From: Paludibacteraceae bacterium
Lineage (GTDB): Bacteria > Bacteroidota > Bacteroidia > Bacteroidales > Paludibacteraceae
Direction of reading: 5' to 3'
NCBI GenBank assembly: GCA_016938015.1
Contig: JAFGVL010000043.1
Span: forward strand, 1 to 36,862
DNA: 36,862 nt
The position numbers and the translations under genes were made by a program. Shown here in pieces: positions 1,596 to 34,210 of this stretch. Every line of letters starts with the position of its first letter. Position 1 is the stretch's first letter. The notes under the pieces were generated by a model. That model was not told where the DNA came from, searched no databases, and saw only the letters and a list, made by a program, of their open reading frames with translations.

Positions 1596-2885
1596 TTAAT
1601 GATTAAATCGTTCTTTATAAGCCCATAAGCCTAAGGCCGGATTTGATATATAGAAAATTTCTTCTCCGTCTGGCATTGTATTATAACCATCTTTTAACTT
1701 TTCAGGGTTATATTTGGAAGAAATTAAGTCGATATCTCCATATTTAAATCCAACACTTTCAATTTCTGCTTGGGTTAGGTTTTCTTTTTCTTTACCGGGA
1801 CAATAAGTAATACTAAACCTACCTTCAGATGATCCATGAATTAAATGTGCAGCAGCGCTTAAATTATTGCGTAATTCTTCATTTTCTTCACAAAATTTTA
1901 AAGTTGCAGGAGTTCCATGATATCCATATTTGCGTATTAAACGGTCAATTTCTTTGTCTTCGCCAAATTCTTTCAAAGCTGGAGCAATGACAATTAATTC
2001 TCCATTGTCATCTATGGCCATTCGAGTTCTGTATACGGATTTATTTCCCAACCAAGTGCTTTTAAATTCAGTTGGATCTAAATAAACGACTACTTTTTTA
2101 AGCGGTTTGTCAAGTAAATCAAAATTTACTTCTAGGGCTAATTTAGCTGCTTTTGTAAATACATCAAAATTATCTCCAACATATAAACCACGAGTTTTAA
2201 TTTTACCGTCTTTTTTGTCTAATCCTACTACAGTTTGAACATAAACGATAGGTAAATGGTTTGTAAAATTATCTGAAGCATAATTAAAAATACGACGCAC
2301 AGGTGTATCTGCATGTCCCATCATTCGTTCCATACCATATGCTGCACCCACAAAATGACTTTTATTGATTCCTTCTACACCGCCAGTTCCAACAAAAATA
2401 TTTTTGTTGTAGTTAGCCATACCAACTACTTCATGAGGCACTACCTGACCGAGTGAAAGTATTAAATCAAAATTACCTTCAATCAAAAGTTTATTAACTT
2501 GGGCAGGCCATGGAAAATCTACAGCTCCTTCCGAAACTTCTTTTACAAACTCCCCACTTACAGTGCCTACAGTTACTACATCATTTCTCCAATCGTGTTC
2601 ACGAATTAAAGATGCTGGCATTTTGCCAAACATATGTGTTATTTGATGATCTGTCATAGGTGTGTGAGTGCCTAAGGCAGGTAATACATCTGTTAATTTG
2701 TTGCCGTAATATTCCCATGTAAATTCAGTAAGTTCACCGGCACGACTAGGTAAACGGGTGTAATCTGGAGGAATAGCCAGCACTTTATTTTTCTTACCAA
2801 TCTTATCTAGAGCAGCGAAAAGGCCTTTTTTTAAATCTTCTGCTGTCAGTTCTAGTTCAGTTGAACCTATTTCGTAATATATCAT
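1596..2885 (-). CDS. LarA-superfamily nickel-pincer racemase/epimerase (hydroxy-acid epimerase)
   Basis: The 429-aa protein belongs to the LarA/DUF2088 family, whose members racemise or epimerise alpha-hydroxy acids with a nickel-pincer nucleotide cofactor. Signatures are DYTRLPS at 41-47 (LarA DxTRPxP), GTHTPMTDHQ at 72-81 (His74, like LarA His108), and VPHEVVGM with His151. Lys161 is 10 residues after His151 and His177 is 26 after it, exactly the spacing of LarA His174/Lys184/His200 (acid-base, cofactor link, nickel ligand). The site therefore looks intact. It lies 10 bp after a PfkB kinase gene and before gnd, in a hexuronate operon. A LarA-family D-gluconate 2-epimerase is known, and mannonate/gluconate interconversion would fit here, but the substrate is inferred. 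Cofactor genes larB, larC and larE are not in the window. Confidence 0.85.
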   Translation of the reverse strand: MIYYEIGSTELELTAEDLKKGLFAALDKIGKKNKVLAIPPDYTRLPSRAGELTEFTWEYYGNKLTDVLPALGTHTPMTDHQITHMFGKMPASLIREHDWRNDVVTVGTVSGEFVKEVSEGAVDFPWPAQVNKLLIEGNFDLILSLGQVVPHEVVGMANYNKNIFVGTGGVEGINKSHFVGAAYGMERMMGHADTPVRRIFNYASDNFTNHLPIVYVQTVVGLDKKDGKIKTRGLYVGDNFDVFTKAAKLALEVNFDLLDKPLKKVVVYLDPTEFKSTWLGNKSVYRTRMAIDDNGELIVIAPALKEFGEDKEIDRLIRKYGYHGTPATLKFCEENEELRNNLSAAAHLIHGSSEGRFSITYCPGKEKENLTQAEIESVGFKYGDIDLISSKYNPEKLKDGYNTMPDGEEIFYISNPALGLWAYKERFNH

Positions 2886-2895
2886 AATAATATTT

Positions 2896-3975
2896 TTATC
2901 TTTTTACTCTCGCATTACCTTTCCAGATACTCCAAACTTGATCTTCATCAGCAGGCATACCATAATCGGTAATAAAGGTAGTTGCTAGAGCACCGGTTGC
3001 CCAACCAAATTGAATCCATTTTTCTGGTTCCCATCCTTTAAGTACTCCGTAAAGCATACCACCTACGAAACCATCGCCACCACCAATACGGTCTTGTACG
3101 CCGATAGCACGAGGTTCAACCACATGCCAGTTGTTACCTTCTAACATGATACCACCCCACATGTGTGCGTTTGCACTTTCTACTTCGCGTAGGGTAGTAG
3201 CAAATACTTCTGCATTAGGGAATGCTTTTTTTACGTTTTGAATCATGCCTTTAAATCCGTCGATTTTAGCAGCGATACCTTTACCCCCTGCCTCAGGACC
3301 TTCGATACCTAAGCAAAGTTGAAAATCTTCTTCGTTACCGATTAAGATGTCAGATACACTGGCGATTTCTTTGAATATATTGTGCAATTCTTCTTCGCGA
3401 CCTTCCCAGAAAGAGGCTCTGTGGTTTAAGTCGAAAGAAATTTTAGTACCATATTTTTTAGCAGCTCTTGCAAGCTCCAAACAGAAATTTGATGTTTCTT
3501 TTGATAAAGCACCAATCAAACCTGATAAGTGAACGATTTGAACACCTTCTTTACCGAATAAACGGTCAAGGTCAAAGTCTTTTACGTTCAAGGTGCGACC
3601 AACTTCACCGGCACGGTCGTTCCATACGCGAGGACCGCGAGAACCGTAACCTGAGTCGGCAATGTTAATTTGGTGACGATATCCCCAAGGACCACCTTGT
3701 TCTACTTCCGGACCTTCGAATGCGAAGCCGCGAGATTTTAAGCTGTCTTTGATAAATTGAGAAATAGGAGAGCCTTTAACAAAAGTAGTTAATACTTTAG
3801 TAGGTAAACCTAAATATGCGGGTACGTTAGCCACGTTTGTTTCAGCTGAAGTAGCTTGCATAAACATGTTGCTGCTTGTATGAATTGGTTGTCCTGCTGG
3901 AGGAGTAATACGAAGTCCCATAGATGTTGGAACAACTAACGCCCATTGGCAATCTTTTTTTAATTGAATACTCAT
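2896..3975 (-). CDS. PfkB-family sugar (acid) kinase, divergent KdgK-like
   Basis: This 359-aa PfkB/ribokinase-fold kinase transfers phosphate from ATP to a sugar or sugar acid. Visible motifs are ETNVANVPAYLG (45-56, degenerate substrate-binding segment), NDRAGE (119-124), FDLNHRASFW (181-190), GNEEDF (213-218) and the anion-hole/catalytic-base motif DRIGGGDGFVGG (295-306, Asp301). The usual GAGD reads GGGD. The N-terminus lacks the normal GE start motif of KDG kinase, and the protein clearly differs from the standard KdgK at 8968. Two KDG-type kinases in one locus suggest different substrates. Between a mannonate oxidoreductase and a LarA-like epimerase plus gnd, a gluconate (or mannonate) kinase role is plausible but unproven; a second KDG kinase is the conservative alternative. 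Confidence 0.85.
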   Translation of the reverse strand: MSIQLKKDCQWALVVPTSMGLRITPPAGQPIHTSSNMFMQATSAETNVANVPAYLGLPTKVLTTFVKGSPISQFIKDSLKSRGFAFEGPEVEQGGPWGYRHQINIADSGYGSRGPRVWNDRAGEVGRTLNVKDFDLDRLFGKEGVQIVHLSGLIGALSKETSNFCLELARAAKKYGTKISFDLNHRASFWEGREEELHNIFKEIASVSDILIGNEEDFQLCLGIEGPEAGGKGIAAKIDGFKGMIQNVKKAFPNAEVFATTLREVESANAHMWGGIMLEGNNWHVVEPRAIGVQDRIGGGDGFVGGMLYGVLKGWEPEKWIQFGWATGALATTFITDYGMPADEDQVWSIWKGNARVKR

Positions 3976-8967: not shown

Positions 8968-10011
8968 ATGAGTAAAAAAGTTGTAACATTTGGAGAAATT
9001 ATGTTACGTTTAGCTACACCCGGTTTTGAACGTGTAAGTCAGTGTAGTCAGTTTAATGTAAATTATGGAGGAGGAGAGTCAAATGTAGCTGTTTCGTTAT
9101 CTAATTATGGTATTGAAACAGAATTTGTTACACGTCTTCCTAAAAATGATATTGCGGATGCTATTATTGGTACCTTGCGTAAATACAATGTAGGTACAAA
9201 AGAAATTTTAAGAGGAGGAAACAGAGTTGGTATTTATTTTTTAGAAACAGGTGCTGTTACTCGCTCAAGTAAAGTAATTTATGATAGAGCCGGTTCTGCT
9301 ATTGCCGAAATTAAACCGGGTATGGTTAATTGGCGCGAAGTGTTTAAAGATGCCGATTGGTTTCACTGGACGGGTATAACTCCGGCTCTTTCGCAAAGTT
9401 GTGCCGATGCTTGTTTAGAGGCTATAAAAATTGCCAACGAAATGGGCGTAACGGTATCTACCGACTTAAACTATCGTAAAAACTTGTGGAACTACGGAAA
9501 AACCGCTGCCGAAGTTATGCCTGCGTTGGTTGAAGGGTGCGATTTGATTTTAGGAAATGAAGAAGATGCCGAAATGGTTTTTGGTATTAAACCCGAAGGA
9601 TTTAATTCGCATATGACCAAAGGAGATATTAATCCAAAAGATTTTGAATCGGTTTGTAAACAATTGATGGAAAAATTTCCGCGTGCTAAAAAAGTGGTTA
9701 TTTCTATAAGAGGTTCTATTAACGCAAATAGAAATACTTGGAGAGGAGTTCTTTATTCAGAAGGCAGTTTGAAAATTTCGCACGATTACGATATCACTCA
9801 TATTGTAGATAGAGTAGGTGCAGGAGATTCGTTTATGGGTGGTTTAATTTATGGCTTGCTAACGTATGCACCCGATGACCAAAAAGCACTTGATTTTGGA
9901 GTAGCGGCTTCTTGTTTAAAACATACTATTTATGGTGATTTTAATTTAGTTACCGTACAAGAAGTGGAGAAACTAATGGGAGGAGATTCTTCCGGACGTG
10001 TTTCACGATAA
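8968..10011 (+). CDS. kdgK: 2-keto-3-deoxygluconate kinase
   Basis: This 347-aa PfkB-family kinase phosphorylates 2-keto-3-deoxygluconate (KDG) to KDPG. It shows the normal N-terminal GEIMLRL (9-15), GGGESNVAVSLSNYG (34-48), YDRAGSA (105-111) with the substrate arginine, STDLNYRKNLW (164-174), GNEEDAEMVF (196-205) and the canonical DRVGAGDSFMGG (281-292, catalytic Asp287). An AAAGGA ribosome-binding-like motif lies about 7 bp before the ATG. The next gene is the KDPG aldolase. KDG formation needs a mannonate or other dehydratase that is not in this window. Compare the divergent paralogue at 2896, which has GGGD in place of GAGD. Confidence 0.93.
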   Translation: MSKKVVTFGEIMLRLATPGFERVSQCSQFNVNYGGGESNVAVSLSNYGIETEFVTRLPKNDIADAIIGTLRKYNVGTKEILRGGNRVGIYFLETGAVTRSSKVIYDRAGSAIAEIKPGMVNWREVFKDADWFHWTGITPALSQSCADACLEAIKIANEMGVTVSTDLNYRKNLWNYGKTAAEVMPALVEGCDLILGNEEDAEMVFGIKPEGFNSHMTKGDINPKDFESVCKQLMEKFPRAKKVVISIRGSINANRNTWRGVLYSEGSLKISHDYDITHIVDRVGAGDSFMGGLIYGLLTYAPDDQKALDFGVAASCLKHTIYGDFNLVTVQEVEKLMGGDSSGRVSR

Positions 10012-10028
10012 ATAAAAATTAAAAATGT

Positions 10029-10097
10029 AAAGTTAAAATTGAAAGAAATAGTATTCTCCTTTCTTTCAACTTTTAACTTTTAACTTTAAACTTATAA
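10029..10097. repeat. Period-7 array forming a long intercistronic hairpin
   Basis: The spacer between kdgK and kdgA holds heptamers TTTCAAC, TTTTAAC, TTTTAAC, TTTAAAC on the right side. Segment 10029-10048 (starting AAAGTTAAAATTG) is complementary to 10060-10080 over about 20 bp with one bulge and an 11-nt loop. This should form a stable mRNA hairpin between the two coding regions, possibly setting the ratio of kinase to aldolase. Confidence 0.6.
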
Positions 10098-10099
10098 AA

Positions 10100-10768
10100 G
10101 TGGCTCGATTTAATAAAATTCAAGTAATTTCAAAAAGTGTAGAAACAGGCATAGTTCCTATTTTTTATCACAAAGATATTGAGGTAGCTAAACAAGTAGT
10201 AAAAGCATGTTATGAGGGTGGAATTCGTGTATTTGAGTTTACAAACCGTGGTGATTTTGCTTCCGAAGTTTTTGGCGAATTGGTTAAGTTTGCTCAAAAA
10301 GAATGTCCGGATATGATTATGGGTGTTGGTTCTATTGTGGATGCTCCAACAGCAGCTTTGTATATCCAATTAGGAGCTAATTTTATTGTAGCGCCATGCT
10401 TTAATGCTGAGGTTGTAAAACTAACCAATAGCCGATTAATTCCTTATATGCCCGGCTGTGGATCTATGACAGAAATTGCAACTGCACAACAAGCAGGATG
10501 CGATGTGTGCAAATTATTTCCGGCCGATGTGCTTGGAACATCATTTGTTAAGGCGGTAAAAGGTCCTATGCCTTGGACTAACTTAATGATTACAGGTGGA
10601 GTAAAACCTGAAGAAGCAAATATAAGAGGCTGGTTTCAAGCAGGAGCTTCTTGTGTGGGTATGGGTTCTAACCTTTTTCCCGGAGAGGTTTTAGCTGCAA
10701 AAGATTGGGCAAAAATTACCCAACTTTGTAAAGATGCATTGGCTATTGTAAAAGAAGTACGTAAATAA
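10100..10768 (+). CDS. kdgA: KDPG/KHG aldolase
   Basis: The 222-aa class I aldolase splits KDPG into pyruvate and glyceraldehyde 3-phosphate, finishing the Entner-Doudoroff end of hexuronate catabolism. The catalytic Glu46 lies in FEFTNRGD (45-52), the phosphate/active-site segment is PYMPGCGSMTEI (115-126), and the Schiff-base Lys138 is in VCKLFPA. GGVKPEE and GASCVGMGSNLF near the C-terminus complete the barrel. The start is GTG at 10100; no closer in-frame ATG precedes the conserved core. It follows kdgK after an 88-bp hairpin-forming spacer and precedes the transporter gene by 28 bp. Confidence 0.94.
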   Translation: MARFNKIQVISKSVETGIVPIFYHKDIEVAKQVVKACYEGGIRVFEFTNRGDFASEVFGELVKFAQKECPDMIMGVGSIVDAPTAALYIQLGANFIVAPCFNAEVVKLTNSRLIPYMPGCGSMTEIATAQQAGCDVCKLFPADVLGTSFVKAVKGPMPWTNLMITGGVKPEEANIRGWFQAGASCVGMGSNLFPGEVLAAKDWAKITQLCKDALAIVKEVRK

Positions 10769-10796
10769 ATTGATATATAACTTAAATTAAATTATT

Positions 10797-12332
10797 ATGG
10801 TAGAAACAATCAGAGAAAAAATGACGAAGTACAGATGGACCATCTGTTCGATGTTGTTTTTTGCTACAACAGTTAATTACTTGGACCGACAAGTACTTTC
10901 TTTAACATGGAAGGACTTTATTGCTCCGGAGTTCCATTGGACAGATGGAGATTATGGTAATATTACCGCTCTTTTTTCTATTTTTTATGCTATTAGTATG
11001 TTGTTTGCCGGAAAAGTTGTTGACTGGTTAGATACTAAAAAAGGCTTTTTATGGGCAATTGGAGTGTGGTCTCTTGGGGCTGTGCTTCATGCTTTTTGTG
11101 GAATTGCTACTTCGGGTATAGTTGCCGGAGAGTGGTTTGTTGGTTTTGAAGGTGCTAAAGAAGCTATTGGTGGAGTTGACAATGTGGCAATGGTTGTTAA
11201 TGTGAGTGTTACCTTGTTTATTTTTGCACGTTTTGTATTGGCGCTTGGTGAAGCCGGTAACTTCCCTGCAGCCATTAAAGCTACAGCCGAATACTTTCCG
11301 AAAAAAGACCGTGCTTTTGCAACTAGCGTATTTAACGCCGGTGCTACTGTTGGGGCTTTAGCTGCTCCTGTTACGGTTCCTGTTATTGCTCACCATTGGG
11401 GTTGGGAAATGGCATTTATTGTAATTGGTGCTTTAGGATTTATTTGGATGGGTATGTGGGTGTTTATTTATAAAAAACCGGATGTGCATCCAAAAGTAAA
11501 TAAAGCTGAATTAGAGTATATTAACCAAGATCATGCTGCCGAAATTGCAGCTAATGACGGAAAAGCATTGGTTAACAGAACCATGAGTTTCAAAGAAATA
11601 TTAAAATACAAACAATCATGGGCATTTATTTTTGGTAAATTTATGACTGATGGTGTGTGGTGGTTCTATTTATTCTGGACTCCTGCTTATTTAAGTTCAG
11701 TATACGGTTTGTCGTCAGATAATCCTCAAGCTCAATTGTTGTTGTTTGTGTTATATGCAATTACTTTATTATCAATTATTGGTGGTTGGTTGCCTACTTA
11801 TTTTGTAGATAAACAAAAAATGAATCCTTATGCAGGTAGAATGAAAGCGATGTTGATTTTCGCATTCTTCCCTCTATTGGCATTGTTTGCTCAACCTCTA
11901 GGTGCTTATTCATATTGGTTCCCTGTATTGATTATTGGTATTGCCGGAGCGGCACATCAATCATGGTCGGCTAATATTTTCTCTACGGTAAGTGATATGT
12001 TCCCTCGTACAGCCATTGCTACTGTAACAGGTATTGGTGGTTTGGCCGGTGGTATTGGTTCGTTTTTAATCAATAAAGGATCGGGTATGTTATTCGATTT
12101 TTCTAGAGGAACTACCTTGGTAAATGGCGAAGAAGTAATTATGACTGATGAGATGATTGCTGCCGGAGCAGAGTTTATTCGTCAGCCTCTAGCATTAGTT
12201 GGTTACGAAGGAATAAAAGCCGGTTATTTAGTTATCTTCAGCATTTGTGCGGTAGCTTATTTAATTGGTTGGGTAGTAATGAAAACATTGGTGCCTAAAT
12301 ACAAACCTATTACTCTTCAAGAAAAGAAATAG
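10797..12332 (+). CDS. exuT: Hexuronate transporter, MFS family (ExuT-like)
   Basis: A 511-aa major facilitator superfamily protein of the anion:cation symporter branch, expected to import glucuronate and galacturonate across the inner membrane. The start YRWTICSMLFFATTVNYLDR is characteristic of ExuT-like carriers, and GEAGNFPAAIKATAEYFP, ATVGALAAPV and GWEMAFIVIGALGF follow. About twelve hydrophobic helices are visible. It is longer than E. coli ExuT (about 430-470 residues) because of an extra loop around residues 100-130 and another near the C-terminus. It is the last gene of the uxaC-kdgK-kdgA arm and ends just before a strong terminator. Confidence 0.88.
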   Translation: MVETIREKMTKYRWTICSMLFFATTVNYLDRQVLSLTWKDFIAPEFHWTDGDYGNITALFSIFYAISMLFAGKVVDWLDTKKGFLWAIGVWSLGAVLHAFCGIATSGIVAGEWFVGFEGAKEAIGGVDNVAMVVNVSVTLFIFARFVLALGEAGNFPAAIKATAEYFPKKDRAFATSVFNAGATVGALAAPVTVPVIAHHWGWEMAFIVIGALGFIWMGMWVFIYKKPDVHPKVNKAELEYINQDHAAEIAANDGKALVNRTMSFKEILKYKQSWAFIFGKFMTDGVWWFYLFWTPAYLSSVYGLSSDNPQAQLLLFVLYAITLLSIIGGWLPTYFVDKQKMNPYAGRMKAMLIFAFFPLLALFAQPLGAYSYWFPVLIIGIAGAAHQSWSANIFSTVSDMFPRTAIATVTGIGGLAGGIGSFLINKGSGMLFDFSRGTTLVNGEEVIMTDEMIAAGAEFIRQPLALVGYEGIKAGYLVIFSICAVAYLIGWVVMKTLVPKYKPITLQEKK

Positions 12333-26406: not shown

Positions 26407-28863
26407 ATGAAATATACTCTCCAACAAATAGCTCAAATTATTAATGCCAAATTGATTGGTAATCCCGACACTTCTGTAAGTTATTTGTTAACTGATAGTC
26501 GTGCAGTTTCTTTTCCTGAAGAAAGCTTGTTTGTGGCAATCAAAACTCCTCGCAACAATGGTCATAAATATATAGCCGACCTCTATGAAGCTAATGTGCG
26601 TAACTTCTTAGTAAGTGAAAAACCTGCGAATTCAAAAGATGCCAATTTTCTATTGGTGGATGATACGCTTAAAGCGATGCAAACCTTAGTGGCTTTTCAT
26701 CGCACACAATTTAAAGTTCCCGTGGTTGCTATTACCGGTAGCAATGGTAAAACCATTGTAAAAGAGTGGTTGTATCAATTGTTGCAAAAAGATGCTGTTA
26801 TTACGCGTTCGCCTCGTTCGTATAATTCGCAAATAGGAGTACCTCTTTCTGTTTGGGAAATGAATGCACAAACACAATTGGGTATTTTCGAAGCGGGTAT
26901 TTCGTTTCCGGGAGAGATGGATAAATTGACCCCTGTTATTGCACCAACTATTGGTATTTTTACTCATTTGGGGGAAGCACATCAAGAAAACTTCTCTTCG
27001 CTGAAAGAAAAATGCAACGAGAAATTGAAGCTTTTTAAGAACTCTGAAGTGCTTATTTATAGAAAAGACGATAAACTGGTAGATATTGCTTTTTCGCAAT
27101 CGGGTATTAAAGCTAAACCCTTTACTTGGGGAAAAAGTCAGGAGGCTGATGTTATTTTACAAGAAGTGAAAAAACAACATGGCAGCACAGCAATTTCTTA
27201 TACGTATAAAGGAAAAAATGATGAAATCACTATTCCTTTTAGCGATGAGGCTTCCATTGAAAATAGCTTGCATTGTTTAGCCTTGCTTTTATATTTGGGT
27301 AAGGATATACGTGTAATAGCCGAACGCATGCAACAACTCGAAGCCCTTGCTATGCGCCTCCAAGTAAAAGAAGGGTTGCGTAATTGCATCATCATCAATG
27401 ATTATTATAATTCTGACTTAAGCTCTTTGGCCATTGCACTCGATTTTCACCAAAGTCAAGCTCGTACCAAAGGTATGAAGCGTACGCTAATTTTGTCGGA
27501 TATTCTGCAAAGTGGACAAAAACCGGCAGAACTTTATAAAAGTGTGTCGGAATTAATTCAACATAAAACGATAGATAAATTGATAGCCATTGGTAGTGAA
27601 ATTTCTGCCAACCAAGAATTATTTGCCTTATCGGAACAATATTTCTTTCAAAACACAGAGGCTTTTTTACAATCACCTTTGTTAGGTGAACTGATGAATG
27701 AAGTCGTTTTATTGAAAGGTTCGCGTCAATTTAAGTTCGAAACCATTTCCGAAAAGTTGGAAGCCATTATGCACCAAACCACCTTGGAAGTGGATTTAAG
27801 TGCGTTGATTCATAATGTCAATTATTTCCGTTCATACCTGAACCCCGAAACCAAAATTATGAGTATGGTAAAAGCCTATGGGTATGGTAGCGGTGATATA
27901 GAAGTGGCGCGTACTTTACAACATCATAATTGTGATTATTTGGCTGTTGCTGTTGCTGATGAAGGTGCTGACTTGCGTAATGAAGGTATCCATATTCCTA
28001 TTGTGGTGATGAATCCTGAAATTGGTGCTTTTGGCAAAATATTCGAATACAGATTAGAACCGGAAATTTATAGCAACCGCTTGCTGGAAGCTTTCTTGAA
28101 AGAAGCCGAGAAACAAGGAGAAAGCAATTATCCGGTGCATATCAAAATAGATACAGGTATGAATCGTTTAGGATTTTTGCCTGTAGAGGTAGATCATTTA
28201 ATTGAGAAACTCAACGACCAAAAACAACTGATGGTACGCTCCGTATTTACCCATCTGGCAGGTACCGACGAAAGTGACTTGGATGCGTTTACGGAAGAAC
28301 AAATAAAACGTTATCAAGCCTGCGCTGAGAAGTTTGAAAAGGCATTTCCATATAAGATTATGCGCCATGCTTTGAATTCGGCAGGTGTAGAACGCTTCTC
28401 ACACTATCAATTTGATATGGTGCGTTTGGGTATAGGTCATTATGGTTTTAGTGCTATAGATTCTAAACTTTTGCAAGAAGTATGTACCCTTAAAACTACC
28501 ATCCTACAAATTAAAACTGTTTCTGCCAGTGAAACTGTAGGTTATAACCGCAAAGGTAAACTTACCCGCGATAGTATAATTGGAGTTATCCCAATCGGTT
28601 ATGCCGATGGCTACGACCGTAAGTTGGGTAATGGAGTAGGAAAGGTATTGGTAAATGGAAAGTTGGCTCCGGTTGTTGGCAATGTTTGTATGGATATTTG
28701 TATGATAGACCTTACAGGTATTTCTGCAAAAGAAGGCGATACTGTGGTGCTTTTTGGTCAAGGGAATTCCATTAACAAAATAGCTAATTCTCTACAAACT
28801 ATTCCTTATGAGGTGTTAACAGGTATTTCGCGAAGAGTGAAGAGAGTTTATTATAAAGAATAG
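26407..28863 (+). CDS. murF-alr: Bifunctional MurF ligase / alanine racemase
   Basis: An 818-aa fusion. Residues 1 to about 445 are a MurF-type ligase adding D-Ala-D-Ala to UDP-MurNAc-tripeptide: N-terminal LLTDSRAV, ATP loop GSNGKTIVKEW (111-121), FEAGISFPGEM. The residue after GKT is Ile where many family members have Thr. Residues about 448-818 are a PLP alanine racemase: LEVDLSALIHNVNYF, Lys489 in MVKAYGYGSG, HIKIDTGMNRLGF, and VGYNRKGKL with the catalytic tyrosine region, then GIGHYGF and GNVCMDICMIDLTG. It supplies D-Ala and uses the dipeptide in one chain. This fusion is a known Bacteroidota arrangement. Next gene starts 6 bp downstream. Confidence 0.94.
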   Translation: MKYTLQQIAQIINAKLIGNPDTSVSYLLTDSRAVSFPEESLFVAIKTPRNNGHKYIADLYEANVRNFLVSEKPANSKDANFLLVDDTLKAMQTLVAFHRTQFKVPVVAITGSNGKTIVKEWLYQLLQKDAVITRSPRSYNSQIGVPLSVWEMNAQTQLGIFEAGISFPGEMDKLTPVIAPTIGIFTHLGEAHQENFSSLKEKCNEKLKLFKNSEVLIYRKDDKLVDIAFSQSGIKAKPFTWGKSQEADVILQEVKKQHGSTAISYTYKGKNDEITIPFSDEASIENSLHCLALLLYLGKDIRVIAERMQQLEALAMRLQVKEGLRNCIIINDYYNSDLSSLAIALDFHQSQARTKGMKRTLILSDILQSGQKPAELYKSVSELIQHKTIDKLIAIGSEISANQELFALSEQYFFQNTEAFLQSPLLGELMNEVVLLKGSRQFKFETISEKLEAIMHQTTLEVDLSALIHNVNYFRSYLNPETKIMSMVKAYGYGSGDIEVARTLQHHNCDYLAVAVADEGADLRNEGIHIPIVVMNPEIGAFGKIFEYRLEPEIYSNRLLEAFLKEAEKQGESNYPVHIKIDTGMNRLGFLPVEVDHLIEKLNDQKQLMVRSVFTHLAGTDESDLDAFTEEQIKRYQACAEKFEKAFPYKIMRHALNSAGVERFSHYQFDMVRLGIGHYGFSAIDSKLLQEVCTLKTTILQIKTVSASETVGYNRKGKLTRDSIIGVIPIGYADGYDRKLGNGVGKVLVNGKLAPVVGNVCMDICMIDLTGISAKEGDTVVLFGQGNSINKIANSLQTIPYEVLTGISRRVKRVYYKE

Positions 28864-28869
28864 AAATTA

Positions 28870-29673
28870 ATGAGCACTTTTAAAGAGTATATATTCATTG
28901 TAACTACCCATGAAGCCTACCCAGAAAAGGCTGTAGATTTAGCCCTTCATCTATCCAAAGGATACGAAAAACCTATTTGTTTTGTTTCCTATTTAGATAA
29001 AAAAATAAAAGCGACTAAAGCCGATATAGAAGGCGTGCATCAAACTTGGATGAAGCAATTAAGTGAACACTGTAAAGAAGGCCTGGAAAGTCATGTGTTG
29101 GATAAGAAAGAAGATTTTCATGCCTTTATGGAAAAGGCAGAGGCTTCAATGGTTATTTTTCAATTGTCGGAGAATATAGGTTATAACAAGGTGCTAACTT
29201 TTCTGAAAATATCCCGTGAATTACGCGTACCCTATATTTTTGTAAAACCATATTTTGCTCCTGTAAAGTTGGATAAGGTATTGGTGCCCGTTACTTTTTT
29301 AATTGAAGACAGAGAAAAAGGGCCTTTTAGTAGTAGCTTGGGACGTTTTTTTGGTTCTGAATTACTTATGATGACGGCCAAAGATTATGGTAGTAAAGCC
29401 AAACAGCATACCAATGCCATTTGTACACTGTTGGATAAATTTAAGTTGAAATATCAATTTATTGAAGCCGAGAAAGATAGTTTTAAAGTCGAATTAGAAG
29501 CTGTTCTTCGTAGTGAAAAATTAGGAGCAGGGATGGTTATGATTTCTGCCTCTCGAGAATATGGATTAGATGATTTTTTGTTTGGACCTAAAGAATTAGA
29601 AAGCATTAATCAAGCATCGGTACCTATCATGCTTATTAATCCCCGAGCCGATTTATATGTGCTTTGTGGATAA
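28870..29673 (+). CDS. Universal-stress-protein-like tandem domain protein
   Basis: A 267-aa cytoplasmic protein that appears to be two alpha/beta nucleotide-binding-like halves. The first starts YIFIVTTHEAYPEKAVDLALHL, the second LDKVLVPVTFLIEDREKGPF and ends SVPIMLINPRADLYVLCG, resembling UspA-type domains ending in a PxxxI/V strand. The ATP-binding GxxGxxxxS motif of ATP-binding Usp proteins is not clear, so nucleotide binding is uncertain. It is the last gene of the GSCFA-VC0807-murF-alr operon, 6 bp after murF-alr, and is followed by a bidirectional hairpin. The assignment is by pattern only. Confidence 0.6.
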   Translation: MSTFKEYIFIVTTHEAYPEKAVDLALHLSKGYEKPICFVSYLDKKIKATKADIEGVHQTWMKQLSEHCKEGLESHVLDKKEDFHAFMEKAEASMVIFQLSENIGYNKVLTFLKISRELRVPYIFVKPYFAPVKLDKVLVPVTFLIEDREKGPFSSSLGRFFGSELLMMTAKDYGSKAKQHTNAICTLLDKFKLKYQFIEAEKDSFKVELEAVLRSEKLGAGMVMISASREYGLDDFLFGPKELESINQASVPIMLINPRADLYVLCG

Positions 29674-29676
29674 AAA

Positions 29677-29703
29677 AAGCCGATAGTAAAAAACTATCGG
29701 CTT
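29677..29703. terminator. Bidirectional intrinsic terminator (end of mini-transcript C and of the murF operon)
   Basis: AAGCCGATAGT (29677-29687) pairs perfectly with ACTATCGGCTT (29693-29703), flanked by A and T runs on both sides. On the minus strand the stem is followed by seven T, ending the small transcription unit that starts near 29748. On the plus strand it ends the operon finishing at 29673. Confidence 0.88.
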
Positions 29704-29753
29704 CAAAAAAAAAGTACTACTTTGTTACCAACCAAACGTAAACTTCATATATA

Positions 29754-29780
29754 AGATGCAATTATTTGGGATGGTTGCAG
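29754..29780 (-). promoter_or_regulatory. Putative ECF promoter, copy C
   Basis: CTGCAAC at 29780-29774, a 16-bp spacer, and ATCT at 29757-29754. The same bipartite pattern and spacing occur at 30789-30815 and 34184-34210, the last just upstream of the ECF sigma gene. Confidence 0.55.
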
Positions 29781-29811
29781 TTTAAATTATTAAAATAAGT
29801 TAATTGAGCAG

Positions 29812-30543
29812 TTATTTTATTTCATAGTACTCGACGACCAATTTTGGGTGTTTTGTTGCATCCGGATGGTCGCTTGAGGCAAAAATCAACGATCTATAAA
29901 CTTCTTCTTTTTGTAACATAATCATAAAACCAAAACTAGTGCTTTTATTATCAATAATATCTTGAACAAGAGCTGTTACATCAATATCAAGATAGTCTTG
30001 GGTTCCACTAGTACTTGCAGGTAATAAAACTTCATGAATAGTTGTAGTTGTAGGTTGAGTAGCCCATGTTATTGTATTTTCTTCCCAAGAGGAAATTATT
30101 CTTCTTAAATAAGCTCCATTATCTTTTCCTGAAGTATGTAAAGAGGCTGAAGAATGTAGTCCATCGCTCATTGTTCCAGTTGGATTGTGGAATAACGAAA
30201 GAAAAGCTTTTTTTATGATAGTACCATTAGCTATTGATGAAAAATCAAAATCAATCACACTTCTGTAATAACCAACCATAGAATTTCTTGTCCATGTTAA
30301 AATATCGAATTCAACATCGTTAGCTCTATTTATGTCGGCCCAGCTTCCTGTTGAAATATTTGCATCTTTACCTTCAGCTCCCGGTTGTAAAACCAATGTA
30401 TGATAGACTGTGTCGTTGGTATTTAAACTAACTTTTCTCATAAATACTTCATCGTTATCATCTAAGCAATAACAAGAATGTGTGAAGAATTGTATACAAA
30501 TAAATAATAGAATGTAGGTATAACGATTTTTTTTAGTTACCAT
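29812..30543 (-). CDS. DNRLRE-domain surface lipoprotein (short paralogue)
   Basis: A 243-aa lipoprotein: hydrophobic signal with Cys24 in THSC, then CYCLDDNDE, and from about residue 50 a DNRLRE-type beta-sandwich domain (LQPGAEGKDANI, RSVIDFDFSSI, AFLSLFHNP, SSWEENTITWATQPTT, DIDVTALVQDII, ASSDHPDATKHPKLVVEYY). DNRLRE domains occur in cell-surface proteins and are usually non-catalytic. It is a shorter paralogue of the protein at 30850, lacking the fibronectin-like repeats. Both mature N-termini carry CY..DDND. A TTTG-N20-TTCCTTTG promoter lies at 30614-30645. Probably surface-exposed; ligand unknown. Confidence 0.82.
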   Translation of the reverse strand: MVTKKNRYTYILLFICIQFFTHSCYCLDDNDEVFMRKVSLNTNDTVYHTLVLQPGAEGKDANISTGSWADINRANDVEFDILTWTRNSMVGYYRSVIDFDFSSIANGTIIKKAFLSLFHNPTGTMSDGLHSSASLHTSGKDNGAYLRRIISSWEENTITWATQPTTTTIHEVLLPASTSGTQDYLDIDVTALVQDIIDNKSTSFGFMIMLQKEEVYRSLIFASSDHPDATKHPKLVVEYYEIK

Positions 30544-30613
30544 AATTTAAGTGCAATTTTGGTTTTACAGGATACAATTAGGTTGTTTGTTAAAAGTGGA
30601 TCAAAATTTATTG

Positions 30614-30645
30614 CAAAGGAATTTAAAAAAAATGTTACAAACAAA
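30614..30645 (-). promoter_or_regulatory. Promoter for the short DNRLRE gene
   Basis: On the minus strand TTTG (30645-30642), a 20-bp spacer and TTCCTTTG (30621-30614), one mismatch from TAnnTTTG. The long leader of about 65 nt would precede the ATG at 30543. This is a housekeeping-type promoter, unlike the ECF-type sites nearby. Confidence 0.45.
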
Positions 30646-30710
30646 CTATTTGTTTGATTTGATGATTAAAAATTACTTATGCAATTTTTGAAAATTAAAT
30701 TATAAAATAA

Positions 30711-30815
30711 TGAAGCCGATAGCAAAAACTATCGGCTTCAAAAAGAAAGTACTACTTTGTTACCAACCAAACGTAAACTTCATATATAAGACACAATTTT
30801 TTAAAAAGGTTGCAG
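30711..30815 (-). ncRNA. Putative ECF-controlled mini-transcript, copy B (contains 7-codon ORF MKFTFGW)
   Basis: The order is the same as in copy C: CTGCAAC-N16-GTCT (30815-30789), TATAT, a 7-codon ORF MKFTFGW with TAA (30783-30760), CAAAGTAGTAC, and a hairpin whose arms TGAAGCCGATAG (30711-30722) and CTATCGGCTTCA (30729-30740) pair over 12 bp, followed by ATTATTTT. The region upstream of the promoter and outside the unit is not conserved with copy C, so the conserved block is the unit itself. It follows the long DNRLRE gene. Small RNA or peptide mRNA cannot be told apart from sequence alone. Confidence 0.55.
30789..30815 (-). promoter_or_regulatory. Putative ECF promoter, copy B
   Basis: CTGCAAC at 30815-30809, 16-bp spacer, GTCT at 30792-30789; same layout as the sites at 29754 and 34184. 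Confidence 0.55.
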
Positions 30816-30849
30816 TTGATGAATGTTAAAGAAAGCTAATTGTTGTTTT

Positions 30850-32133
30850 TTAATAGTAAACAACAACCAATTTTGGGTGTTTAGTACTATCAGGGTAGTC
30901 GCTCGAAGCAAAAATCAAACCTCTGTAATAGTCTTCTGTTTGAAGTATTAGCATCATACCGTAACTGCTTGTTTTATTGTTTATAATGCTCTGAATTACG
31001 GAAGTTATGTCGATACTTGGGTAGTCTTGATGTACATCTGTGCTTGGTGGAATTATTGCTTGACTTTCGTCAGTTGTTGCCGGTTGGGTATTCCATGTCA
31101 CAGTGTTTTCATCCCAATATTGAGTAATTCGTTTTACTAATACAGCATTATCTCCTCCGGTTGTTGGATAAGTGTTGGCATCCGAATGTTTACCGCTATT
31201 ATTTTGAGATGTAGGATTGTTGTATAAAGAAAGGGTGGCACTTTTTATCATGCTACCTTCTGGTATTGTTGAGAGATCAAAATCTAATAGCGATCGAGTT
31301 ATGAATTTAATTCCTGAGTATGTCCAGGCCATTATATCTATATCAGGACCACTTCCACTCGTAGCGTCGGGAACCCTACTGTTTATATATGCATCTTTTC
31401 CTTCTGTCGAAGGTTGAAGGCTTAAAACAGATAGCGTTTTAAAAGATACTTCATTTCCATAAATAACTTTACTTGCGTTTGTGGCATACGCTCTTACGTA
31501 ATATTTTGTACCACTTGTTAATCCGGTTAAAATAGCTTTAAAAGAACCGGAACCTTCTCCGGATGAAGATTTAAAATCATTAATGGTTGGATTTGGATTT
31601 GTACTCCAACACACCCCCTTATCTGTTATAAAAAAATCTGAGATGGAAGCAACCGTTCCTCCTAAAATTGCAGTTGTAATGTCAATGCTATCTGCAGCAG
31701 ATGTAGCTATTGAAGAAAATTCGCCCAAAGTAGTAAAAGATATAGTATTGCTATATCCAATTCCTTTTTTGTTAATAGCATAAGCTCTTACATAATAGGT
31801 TGTAAGCGGCTGTAAATTTTCAAGTTTTACCGCATAAAACGATGAATTGTTTAAATCAACTAGTTTTGAATCTGAAATAGTGGGCTCTTTTTGTGTATTC
31901 CAACAAATACCTCTTTCTTCAACTGGACTATCTCCATCGTCAACTAATTCTGCATGGATGGTTGCTGTAAAAATACTGATATTTAAACTGTTAGTTGTTT
32001 GTATGTTGGGAGTTTTGAGTAAAACAATATCGTTGTCGTCAAAAAATGAATAGCACGAATTCAATAAAAATGGGAGGGTAAAAACTAGGAGGTAAAAGCG
32101 TTTTTTTTTATTCTTTAAAAAAAAGATACTCAT
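30850..32133 (-). CDS. DNRLRE-domain surface lipoprotein with two fibronectin-III-like repeats
   Basis: A 427-aa lipoprotein: Cys27 in LLNSC, then CYSFFDDND. Residues about 48-136 and 141-234 are two Fn3-like repeats sharing GxCWxTxxxPTIxD and YYVRAYAxN. Residues 238-427 are a DNRLRE domain (LQPSTEGKDAYI, RSLLDFDLSTI, ATLSLYNNPT, QYWDENTVTWNTQPAT, SIDITSVIQSII, ASSDYPDSTKHPKLVVVYY), clearly paralogous to the protein at 29812. It lies downstream of the sigma factor and small envelope protein genes on the same strand, 92 bp after the latter. Likely an extended surface protein holding its DNRLRE domain away from the membrane; binding target unknown. Confidence 0.82.
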   Translation of the reverse strand: MSIFFLKNKKKRFYLLVFTLPFLLNSCYSFFDDNDIVLLKTPNIQTTNSLNISIFTATIHAELVDDGDSPVEERGICWNTQKEPTISDSKLVDLNNSSFYAVKLENLQPLTTYYVRAYAINKKGIGYSNTISFTTLGEFSSIATSAADSIDITTAILGGTVASISDFFITDKGVCWSTNPNPTINDFKSSSGEGSGSFKAILTGLTSGTKYYVRAYATNASKVIYGNEVSFKTLSVLSLQPSTEGKDAYINSRVPDATSGSGPDIDIMAWTYSGIKFITRSLLDFDLSTIPEGSMIKSATLSLYNNPTSQNNSGKHSDANTYPTTGGDNAVLVKRITQYWDENTVTWNTQPATTDESQAIIPPSTDVHQDYPSIDITSVIQSIINNKTSSYGMMLILQTEDYYRGLIFASSDYPDSTKHPKLVVVYY

Positions 32134-32225: not shown

Positions 32226-32894
32226 CTAATTGGGTTTTCCAAATTTATAAATGATTTGTAAACTACATCCAATTCCTATATCAAAGGTTGAGTTGTAGGA
32301 AGTTTCTTCGGCATAGAAAGGTTTTATAGGACTAATAATGTGTATTATTTCATTGTATTCTTTGTTGCCGGCAACATTATTTCGCCAGCCACAATAAATG
32401 CTTGGAGCAATATTTATTGAGAAGCTTTTGTTAATAGAATATACAAATCCAAGTTTTAGATGGTTGTTGTTTTGTGGCGGATAATCTCTACCAAAAGGAA
32501 AATACCACATACTTGTTATTTCAGGAAATAGTGAGAATTGAGAAAATAATTTAATGTTTGAACCGAATCCTATTCCGCCAATCAAAGGTTGAGCTAAATT
32601 AAAGTTGGTTCCAACTGTAAGTGTTAAAAAATAAGATTTGTAGTTGATAGTTGATAAAACGCCAATGTTTTCGTAATCGGAAGTTATGATTGCTATTTCT
32701 TTAAAAAATTGAAAATCAGACTTTTTTTTGTCGTTTATTTTCTCAACAGCAGTTCTTTTGGGTATAGTTAATGTATCATACACTACAAGAGTGTCAGTTA
32801 TAAAAAGTGTATCTTGTAGGTTGTTGTTGCGCGAAAAACTAGTAACAAAGCATCCTAATAGTCCAATTGAAAGTATAAATAACTGTTTTATCAT
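32226..32894 (-). CDS. Small secreted or outer-membrane protein, possible beta-barrel
   Basis: A 222-aa protein with an N-terminal export signal (MIKQLFILSIGLLGCFVTS). The LLGC at 12-15 could also be a lipobox. After a short linker with repeated DT residues, the rest alternates hydrophobic and polar residues with many aromatic positions and strand-like segments such as SYFLTLTVGTNFNL, GFGSNIKLFSQFSLFPEI, LKLGFVYSINKSFSINIAPS and a final CSLQIIYKFG, typical of an outer-membrane barrel. I do not recognise a named family. It is 106 bp downstream of the ECF sigma gene and precedes the DNRLRE lipoproteins, so it is probably part of the same surface module. Confidence 0.6.
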   Translation of the reverse strand: MIKQLFILSIGLLGCFVTSFSRNNNLQDTLFITDTLVVYDTLTIPKRTAVEKINDKKKSDFQFFKEIAIITSDYENIGVLSTINYKSYFLTLTVGTNFNLAQPLIGGIGFGSNIKLFSQFSLFPEITSMWYFPFGRDYPPQNNNHLKLGFVYSINKSFSINIAPSIYCGWRNNVAGNKEYNEIIHIISPIKPFYAEETSYNSTFDIGIGCSLQIIYKFGKPN

Positions 32895-33000: not shown

Positions 33001-34167
33001 TTAGTTTTCATTTTCGTCAATTACAACTTGTTTTCTAACAACTACTTGTTTACGTATTACCACAGGTTCAGTTTTTTTACTACTGTCAATGGTTATAGGC
33101 TCATTGGTTTGTATAGGCTTATCTGTTGTTTGAATACTTGTTGAGTTGTTTTCTACGGGTTCTTGTTTACTAGTATTCTTAGTTATTGTAGATGCTGAAA
33201 GAGTTTGTTTTTCCTTTTGTGTTACTTCCTGTGTTATTGGTTTGCTAACTTTTTTATAATCAGATTGCGGCAAACTGTCTTCCTGTAAAATTGGCGTTGC
33301 ATTTTGTATTGGTGTTTCAATTGTTGGTTGAATGTGAATAGGTTCTTTTTTAGAGGAGTATTGTTGGTAGGCAATAATCCCTATTAAACTGGCACTTACA
33401 ATACCAATACCCCAATAAATAACTGAAGAAGATTGAAAAAAGCCAACTTTAGGCAGAGGAGTAGTTGTTTTATTGTTAGCAATCAATTTTTTTAATGTGC
33501 TAGATTGATTAGGAACAGCCAGTTTGAAATCGGAAAAAGATTTTTTATACAAACGATCAATATAGTTGGCTTTTGCTCCTGCTGTAAACAGAGGCAAACC
33601 AAGTAATATTTTCTTACGTTTATCTTTTTCTTTTTTCATTTCCAGTGTTTTTTCAACCAATAGCGCCTGAATTTTTTTTCGAGCTCTAGATAAATGTGAT
33701 TTTGAGGTGTTTTCTTCAATATCCAGCACTTCGCTTATTTGTTTGTGAGAATAACCCTCAATGACATATAAATTAAAAACTGTTTTGTGATGTAGTGGAA
33801 TTAAATCAATAACTTCCAATAAATCTTGTTGTGAAAAATGGGCGTTAGTAATCAATGCTTGTGCCGAACTATCAGTAGTTTCAGGAGTTATTTCATCGGT
33901 AATAAATACTTCATCAACATCGGTAAAGCTATTTTTTTTACTGTTTCGAATATATTCCAGTACATTATTTAGCACTACCTTTTTAAGCCAACCTTCTAAT
34001 GAGCCGTGTCCATTAAAAGTGTGGGCGTTTTCTATGGCTTTAATAAATCCATCGTGAAGCAAGTCTTCAGCAAGTTGACTGTCGTGTACATATCTTCTGC
34101 AAATACCTAATAATTGACCAGCTTGTTGTTTGTATATTTTATTCCAATCAAAGTTATTTTTGCTCAT
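33001..34167 (-). CDS. ECF-type sigma factor fused to a transmembrane helix and extracytoplasmic tail
   Basis: A 388-aa protein. Residues 1-75 hold sigma region 2 (QLAEDLLHDGFIKAIENAHTF, then GWLKKVVLNNVLEYIR). Residues about 112-175 hold region 4 (DLIPLHHKTVFNLYVIEGYS, HKQISEVLDIEENTSKSHLSR, RKKIQALL). Usual ECF factors stop near here. This one continues with a basic linker, a single membrane helix at about 248-268 (VIYWGIGIVSASLIGIIAYQ) and a 118-residue Thr/Ser/Gln/Pro-rich tail ending in repeated VVRKQVV. Predicted topology: sigma domains cytoplasmic, tail in the periplasm, as if an anti-sigma-like anchor were built in. A CTGCAAC-N16-ATCT site 17 bp upstream of the start suggests autoregulation. 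Release by proteolysis is a hypothesis. Confidence 0.85.
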   Translation of the reverse strand: MSKNNFDWNKIYKQQAGQLLGICRRYVHDSQLAEDLLHDGFIKAIENAHTFNGHGSLEGWLKKVVLNNVLEYIRNSKKNSFTDVDEVFITDEITPETTDSSAQALITNAHFSQQDLLEVIDLIPLHHKTVFNLYVIEGYSHKQISEVLDIEENTSKSHLSRARKKIQALLVEKTLEMKKEKDKRKKILLGLPLFTAGAKANYIDRLYKKSFSDFKLAVPNQSSTLKKLIANNKTTTPLPKVGFFQSSSVIYWGIGIVSASLIGIIAYQQYSSKKEPIHIQPTIETPIQNATPILQEDSLPQSDYKKVSKPITQEVTQKEKQTLSASTITKNTSKQEPVENNSTSIQTTDKPIQTNEPITIDSSKKTEPVVIRKQVVVRKQVVIDENEN

Positions 34168-34183
34168 CCCTTTACTATTTGTT

Positions 34184-34210
34184 AGATGTATTTTTTTTAA
34201 AAAGTTGCAG
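34184..34210 (-). promoter_or_regulatory. Putative autoregulated ECF promoter of the sigma gene
   Basis: CTGCAAC at 34210-34204, a 16-bp spacer that is T/A-rich, and ATCT at 34187-34184, followed by the ATG at 34167. Spacing and both elements match the sites in front of the two mini-transcripts. Confidence 0.55.

What the first reader, a model, noticed from the sequence alone, without database searches (positions are those of the whole stretch)
29677..30815. Duplicated mini-transcript unit with a 7-codon ORF (MKFTFGW) and terminator
Two units share 62 bp with one mismatch, each with promoter boxes, ATG...TAA encoding MKFTFGW directly at the predicted start, and an intrinsic terminator. Each follows a DNRLRE lipoprotein gene. 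They could be ECF-controlled small RNAs or leaderless peptide mRNAs, possibly ligands or signals for the surface lipoproteins or the membrane-bound sigma. I do not recognise this as a known RNA family.
Basis: partly seen in the sequence, partly recalled or inferred. Interest (0 to 1): 0.75.

Follow-up and report, generated by a model that had tools for sequence, protein, structure and literature searches.

The report
Twin envelope-stress small RNA genes
Two nearly identical, roughly 75-nucleotide genes sit beside the gene for a membrane-linked stress regulator and carry the same kind of switch as that regulator; they most likely make a small regulatory RNA rather than a seven-residue peptide, and a separate bacterial family has an equivalent RNA gene at the end of its own regulator operon.

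Summary
On the minus strand, 29672-29783 and 30706-30818 each hold a promoter, a core that is identical at 67 of 68 positions, and an intrinsic terminator. The DNRLRE lipoprotein genes before them are only 46% identical in protein, and their 4-fold sites are saturated (10/33). The promoter is of ECF type (TGCAACC-N16-TCTTATA). The same boxes at the same spacing lie upstream of the linked ECF sigma gene (34182-34209) and of exported-protein genes elsewhere in the genome. 13 of 29 related sigma genes from other Bacteroidales carry TGCAAC-N17-19-TCT upstream (control mean 0.08). The MKFTFGW reading is weak: the predicted start of transcription falls on or just after the ATG, and conservation continues unchanged past the stop codon. 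No homologue of this RNA was found in about 500 related genomes or Rfam, nor its peptide in 84,980 species genomes. The arrangement recurs, however: in another Bacteroidales family a different ECF-promoter, terminator-ended, ORF-less unit lies directly after the sigma/OMP operon in 7 of 9 genomes, with invariant promoter boxes and a nearly invariant RNA core. Best reading: an ECF-sigma-dependent small RNA encoded in its own sigma gene cluster. Targets and expression are untested.

The parts
29773..29779 (-). Unit 1, -35 box TGCAACC of the ECF-type promoter
29750..29756 (-). Unit 1, -10 box TCTTATA; the spacer to the -35 box matches unit 2 at only 9 of 16 positions while both boxes are identical
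29672..29748 (-). Unit 1, predicted RNA (about 70-77 nt; start within about 3 nt of the ATG, not mapped), ending in the terminator
   Evidence: start position inferred from ECF promoter geometry
29725..29748 (-). Unit 1, mini-ORF MKFTFGW-stop (translation doubtful)
29676..29704 (-). Unit 1, intrinsic terminator hairpin followed by T-tract
30808..30814 (-). Unit 2, -35 box TGCAACC
30785..30791 (-). Unit 2, -10 box TCTTATA
30706..30783 (-). Unit 2, predicted RNA (about 70-78 nt), ending in the terminator
30760..30783 (-). Unit 2, mini-ORF MKFTFGW-stop (translation doubtful)
30711..30740 (-). Unit 2, terminator hairpin with an imperfect T-tract
34182..34209 (-). Promoter of the sigma gene, same class (TGCAAC-N17-TCTAA): predicted autoregulation
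   Evidence: repeat family D3 joins it with the two unit promoters
33001..34167 (-). ECF sigma factor (regions 2 and 4) with a C-terminal extension that holds one probable membrane span; the likely regulator of the units
   Evidence: membrane span by reading the sequence
32226..32894 (-). Exported protein of 222 aa, perhaps an outer-membrane barrel partner of the sigma (no family hit; inferred from position and look)
30850..32133 (-). DNRLRE-domain lipoprotein 2, upstream of unit 2
29812..30543 (-). DNRLRE-domain lipoprotein 1, between unit 2 and unit 1

Best explanation
Each unit is a free-standing gene for a small regulatory RNA of about 70-77 nt. It is transcribed by RNA polymerase carrying the ECF sigma encoded 3-4 kb upstream in the same gene cluster, and ends at its own intrinsic terminator. 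When the membrane-linked sigma is released by an envelope signal it would transcribe its own gene, a few exported-protein genes and both copies of the RNA. The RNA (5' arm AAGUUUACGUUUGGUUGGUAAC, with a GGUUGGUA loop open) would then tune envelope-protein mRNAs by base pairing, without Hfq. Shown from sequence: the promoter boxes, the terminators, the constraint on the unit, the shared promoter class of sigma gene and units, and a recurrent sigma-operon plus ECF-promoter RNA unit in another family. Inferred: that this sigma drives the units, that the transcript exists, and that it acts by base pairing. The targets are unknown.
For: (1) The boxes CTGCAACC and TCTTATA occur together three times in the 2.0 Mb genome against 0 for the reversed pattern. 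The relaxed TGCAAC-N17-TCTWA occurs 11 times against 0, including the sigma gene, both units, a lipoprotein-like gene on C37 and an exported protein on C72. C106 has one more copy (GCGTCTATA) before an exported-protein gene. (2) 13 of 29 homologous sigma genes carry TGCAAC-N17-19-TCT upstream; 179 permuted hexamers average 0.08. (3) Between the two units the boxes and the whole core are fixed while the promoter spacer (9/16) and the flanking genes (4-fold sites 10/33) have diverged. (4) Constraint runs evenly through the mini-ORF and about 14 nt past its stop codon up to the T-run. (5) A search of about 640 kb around related sigma genes for ECF-promoter to terminator units without ORFs gave 2, against a control mean of 0.095. 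One of them is syntenic in 7 of 9 genomes of its family, directly after the sigma/OMP operon, with invariant TGCAAC and CATC and a core of about 35 nt that is nearly invariant, while the OMP protein is only 32-53% identical. (6) Precedents: F. psychrophilum ECF motif SM6 drives the sRNA Rfp11 and an ECF sigma/anti-sigma pair (PMC9723704); sigmaE-dependent sRNAs FoxI and FoxJ in F. nucleatum (PMC11005410).
Against: There are no expression data. The RNA itself was found in one genome only, so base-pair covariation cannot be tested; the 5' hairpin alone is not significant (z about -1.2 to -1.7). A search for extended complementary targets gave 29 sites against 38 for the control, none near a credible start codon. 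Duplex energies with regulon mRNAs are unremarkable, p 0.025 at best for a regulon gene among 30 start regions tested. Hfq was not found. Gene conversion between the copies could account for part of the identity.
Confidence: 0.66

Rival explanations
1. Leaderless mRNA for a functional heptapeptide MKFTFGW (signal, ligand or regulatory peptide).
For: The ORF is intact in both copies. The ATG lies close to the expected transcription start. In one related genome an ATG in frame with the sigma gene has the same position relative to an ECF -10 box (TCTTATTAATGAAAG, L041).
Against: By E. coli sigmaE geometry (own knowledge) transcription would start 3 nt after the A of the ATG, so the start codon may not be transcribed. 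Conservation is equally complete after the stop. Peptide-only constraint would leave all five synonymous codons unchanged with p about 0.05. The peptide pattern in 84,980 species genomes gave 8 hits, about the number I estimate by chance. Leaderless mRNAs make up about 4-5% in this phylum (PMC7366714, PMC9723704). The analogous RNA of the other family shows no long ORF.
Confidence: 0.1
2. 5' leader/attenuator: the terminator of unit 2 is a conditional stop before lipoprotein 1, with the mini-ORF as leader peptide.
For: Unit 2 lies upstream of lipoprotein 1 on the same strand (about 165 nt to its ATG), with an imperfect T-tract.
Against: Unit 1, equally conserved, has no gene downstream on its strand; the neighbour is convergent. 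No antiterminator alternative was seen in the folds.
Confidence: 0.1
3. No function of the RNA itself: recent gene conversion or spread of a promoter-terminator cassette, or a mere 3' end/insulator of the lipoprotein genes.
For: Only one genome has it; two tandem paralogous blocks offer a route for conversion.
Against: A conversion tract would not leave both boxes intact and the spacer between them diverged (9/16). A 3' end needs no ECF promoter. An analogous unit is conserved in seven genomes elsewhere.
Confidence: 0.14

Closest known systems
sigmaE-dependent sRNAs of Enterobacteria (RybB, MicA; own knowledge) and FoxI/FoxJ of Fusobacterium nucleatum (PMC11005410)
   Same: ECF-sigma promoter, short independent transcript, own terminator, linked to an envelope-stress-type sigma.
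   Different: No sequence relation tested or known; here two copies lie inside the sigma gene's own cluster; no Hfq found; targets unknown; no expression data.
Rfp11 and the SM6 (ECF) regulon of Flavobacterium psychrophilum (PMC9723704)
   Same: Same phylum; an ECF promoter class shared by an sRNA and an ECF sigma/anti-sigma pair.
   Different: From the table positions Rfp11 is not next to that sigma gene; a conserved CGT box is described for its -10 region; no sequence comparison was made.
Unnamed ECF-promoter RNA unit at the end of the sigma/OMP operon in family f22 (L198-L204, found here)
   Same: TGCAAC...TCT promoter class, no long ORF, terminator-ended, immediately 3' of the ECF sigma operon.
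   Different: Different RNA sequence, spacing 19 instead of 17, about 120 nt, single copy, anti-sigma-like and barrel parts apparently fused in one protein.
sroB/ChiX (RF00368)
   Same: Sub-threshold full-length match of both copies (22.8 and 22.5 bits); similar outline: short 5' part and strong terminator.
   Different: Well below the gathering score of 44, E about 4: chance-level.

Membership tests
ECF-sigma-dependent small RNA | ECF-type promoter directly upstream | tested here: met
   TGCAACC-N16-TCTTATA at both units; same class upstream of the linked sigma gene and of 13 of 29 homologous sigma genes
ECF-sigma-dependent small RNA | Short unit with its own terminator | tested here: met
   Promoter and terminator about 75 nt apart in sequence; the transcript itself was not observed
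ECF-sigma-dependent small RNA | Expression depends on the sigma | not testable with these tools
   No RNA data or mutants for this organism
ECF-sigma-dependent small RNA | Non-coding | tested here: inconclusive
   A 7-codon ORF exists; position, codon and post-stop conservation argue against a peptide
ECF-sigma-dependent small RNA | Base-pairs with envelope-protein mRNAs | tested here: inconclusive
   No excess of complementary sites over control
Any Rfam family (4227 models) | Score at or above gathering threshold | tested here: not met
   No match in the window; best sub-threshold sroB 22.8 of 44 bits
Leader-peptide attenuator | Regulated gene downstream on the same strand | tested here: not met
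   True for unit 2 only; unit 1 faces a convergent gene
Leaderless micropeptide mRNA | Constraint on codons beyond constraint on flanking untranslated bases | tested here: not met
   Identity is equally complete before, inside and after the ORF

The most novel reading that the evidence does not exclude
Bacteroidales ECF sigma/outer-membrane-sensor operons commonly carry a self-encoded regulatory RNA at their end, driven by the operon's own sigma and evolving quickly between families: a built-in noncoding arm of one-locus envelope sensors, here in a genome in which no Hfq was found.
Probability: 0.35. Interest if true: 0.75.

Novelty: new variant of a known kind. Interest (0 to 1): 0.56.

Why it matters
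Noncoding arms of ECF envelope responses are known from Proteobacteria and Fusobacterium. In Bacteroidota, whose ECF regulons are mostly unmapped, only scattered candidates are on record in the papers read here. A small RNA encoded in the sigma gene's own locus, seen here as twin copies and in another family as a syntenic unit in 7 of 9 genomes, gives a concrete sequence signature (TGCAAC-N17-19-TCT followed by a terminator and no ORF) with which such RNAs could be found and tested across the phylum.

Tried and rejected
DNA search for the unit in 61 relatives and 393 genomes of the order: nothing beyond chance. Covariance model in 393 genomes of the order and 120 of the family: only unrelated terminators. 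Peptide pattern in 84,980 species genomes: 8 hits; the Fulvivirga hit (L070) looked similar at RNA level but has a stop at codon 4 and no ECF promoter, so it was taken as chance. Viral contigs and plasmids: none. Rfam: none. Antisense-target search in the own genome: no excess; duplex energies with start regions of regulon genes and control genes: no clear signal. In one search minus-strand loci were read in the wrong orientation; the corrected run is. The G096 unit (L161, 7825-7725 minus) is a weaker second analogue whose conservation could not be tested.

Full report
What is there. Both units lie on the minus strand. Unit 2 (30706-30818) follows DNRLRE lipoprotein gene 2 (30850-32133). Unit 1 (29672-29783) follows DNRLRE lipoprotein gene 1 (29812-30543) and ends against the convergent gene 28870-29673. 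In order each has CTGCAACC, a 16-nt spacer, TCTTATATATGAAG, the stretch TTTACGTTTGGTTGGTAACAAAGTAGTACTTT, a T-rich linker and a hairpin GAAGCCGATAG/CTATCGGCTTC (the outer pair differs in unit 1). From TCTTATATATG the copies agree at 67 of 68 positions.

More than chance. The two lipoprotein domains are 46% identical in protein and 56% in DNA, and only 10 of 33 fourfold-degenerate sites agree, so the duplicated block is old. Unless conversion is at work, the unit is under strong constraint. Conversion alone fits poorly: both promoter boxes are identical while the spacer between them agrees at 9 of 16 positions, and the sequence after the terminator is unrelated.

The promoter. It is not the phylum's primary type (TAnnTTTG). 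Its boxes fit ECF promoters, and the same boxes at the same 17-nt TGCAAC-to-TCT distance lie just upstream of the ECF sigma gene in the same cluster (34182-34209, gene start 34167); the repeat finder groups the three promoters by itself (family D3). Genome-wide the relaxed pattern occurs 11 times against 0 for the reversed control. Context is convincing at the sigma gene, the two units, C37 (402-aa lipoprotein-like gene) and C72 (422-aa exported protein), and a variant precedes an exported-protein gene on C106. At least two of the other hits lie inside genes, and the context of four was not resolved. In other Bacteroidales, 13 of 29 homologous sigma genes have TGCAAC-N17-19-TCT upstream; permuted hexamers average 0.08, and the highest values (4 and 3) come from hexamers that overlap the real motif by a shift. 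So this sigma subfamily probably recognises this promoter and controls its own gene.

RNA or peptide. The ORF MKFTFGW is real on paper. In E. coli sigmaE promoters the C of the -10 element sits at about -10 (own knowledge); this would put the start at 29745, just past the ATG, with an uncertainty of about 3 nt. Conservation is total through the ORF and for about 14 nt after its stop, up to the T-run that holds the single mismatch. If only the peptide were under selection, the five codons with synonyms would all stay unchanged with probability about 0.05, given the codon divergence of the neighbouring genes. Leaderless mRNAs are about 4% in B. thetaiotaomicron (5' UTRs under 10 nt; PMC7366714) and 5.5% in F. 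psychrophilum (PMC9723704). One point for the peptide: in L041 an ATG in frame with the sigma gene sits equally close to the -10 box. I rate the peptide at 0.1.

Search for relatives. The RNA was not found in 61 relatives, 393 genomes of the order, 120 of the family, Rfam, viral contigs or plasmids, nor as a peptide pattern in 84,980 species genomes beyond chance. Three other species of the same genus lack it, and the one with a sigma hit has only a distant one. Covariation therefore cannot be tested, and the function rests on the two copies and on analogy.

Analogy found here. I fetched up to 20 kb around 40 related sigma genes, plus one earlier 14-kb locus (about 640 kb in all), and looked for TGCAAC-N16-20-TCT followed within 200 nt by a terminator and no ORF of 45 aa or more. 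Two were found; 179 permuted hexamers average 0.095, with 2 of 179 reaching two. The real motif is also commoner than the permuted ones (41 sites against a mean of 12), so part of this excess follows from that. One, in G057 (L173: 11193-11340), lies directly after the sigma gene and a gene that looks like a fused anti-sigma/outer-membrane protein. Its RNA is present in 7 of 9 genomes of that family. In all seven TGCAAC and CATC are invariant, a core CAGTAACAAC(n)AAACCTTTTATTATTGATGTTT is nearly invariant, and the OMP gene ends 123-250 nt upstream of the core although its protein is only 32-53% identical. The terminator hairpin keeps pairing through a few double changes (2 of 32 pairs), which is weak covariation, and one of the seven copies (L204) shows no clear terminator. 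No long ORF was seen in the reference copy. This shows independently that Bacteroidales sigma operons can end in an ECF-promoter RNA gene, and it is the main reason for preferring the RNA reading for the window units.

How it probably works. A membrane-linked sigma (388 aa; sigma regions 2 and 4, then an extension with one probable membrane span) senses the envelope, perhaps with the exported protein 32226-32894. When active it raises its own transcription, several exported proteins and both RNA copies. The RNA has an open GGUUGGUA loop and could pair with C-rich mRNA starts. I found no convincing target: complementary sites 29 against 38 in the control, none at credible gene starts, duplex energies unremarkable. 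Hfq was not found, so pairing would need another helper or none.

Known kinds. It works like sigmaE-dependent sRNAs (RybB and MicA, own knowledge; FoxI and FoxJ in F. nucleatum, PMC11005410). In the same phylum the ECF motif SM6 of F. psychrophilum drives sRNA Rfp11 and an ECF sigma/anti-sigma pair (PMC9723704). What differs is that the RNA gene is built into the sigma gene's own cluster and is duplicated. Sigma dependence and target pairing, two defining features, could not be shown here.

Verdict. A new variant of a known kind, of moderate interest, with a clear test.

Noticed in passing
L173:11193-11340 (+) and L198-L204: A different RNA gene with an ECF promoter and terminator lies directly after the sigma/OMP operon in 7 of 9 genomes of another Bacteroidales family; nearly invariant core, no long ORF, no Rfam match.
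   Followed up: yes
window 33001-34167 and 32226-32894; L095:3603-4826 and 2488-3603; L173:9303-9854 and 9866-11020: The sigma factor appears fused to a membrane-spanning, anti-sigma-like extension and is followed by a probable outer-membrane barrel. G091 has the same fusion; in G057 the anti-sigma-like part is instead fused to the barrel. Domain shuffling among sigma, anti-sigma and sensor is suggested by eye only.
   Followed up: partly
L161:7825-7725 (-): A second possible ECF-promoter to terminator mini-unit, divergent from a related sigma gene in G096; conservation untested.
   Followed up: no
L041, minus strand near 1405-1350: An ATG in frame with a related sigma gene sits right behind its ECF -10 box (TCTTATTAATGAAAG), so this sigma mRNA may be leaderless.
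   Followed up: no
L083 (C37), L086 (C72), L093 (C106): Further members of the predicted ECF regulon in the same genome: three genes for exported or lipoprotein-like proteins of unknown function.
   Followed up: partly
window 26407-28863 (+): One 818-aa ORF joins MurF-like and alanine-racemase-like parts (by reading the sequence only; not searched).
   Followed up: no
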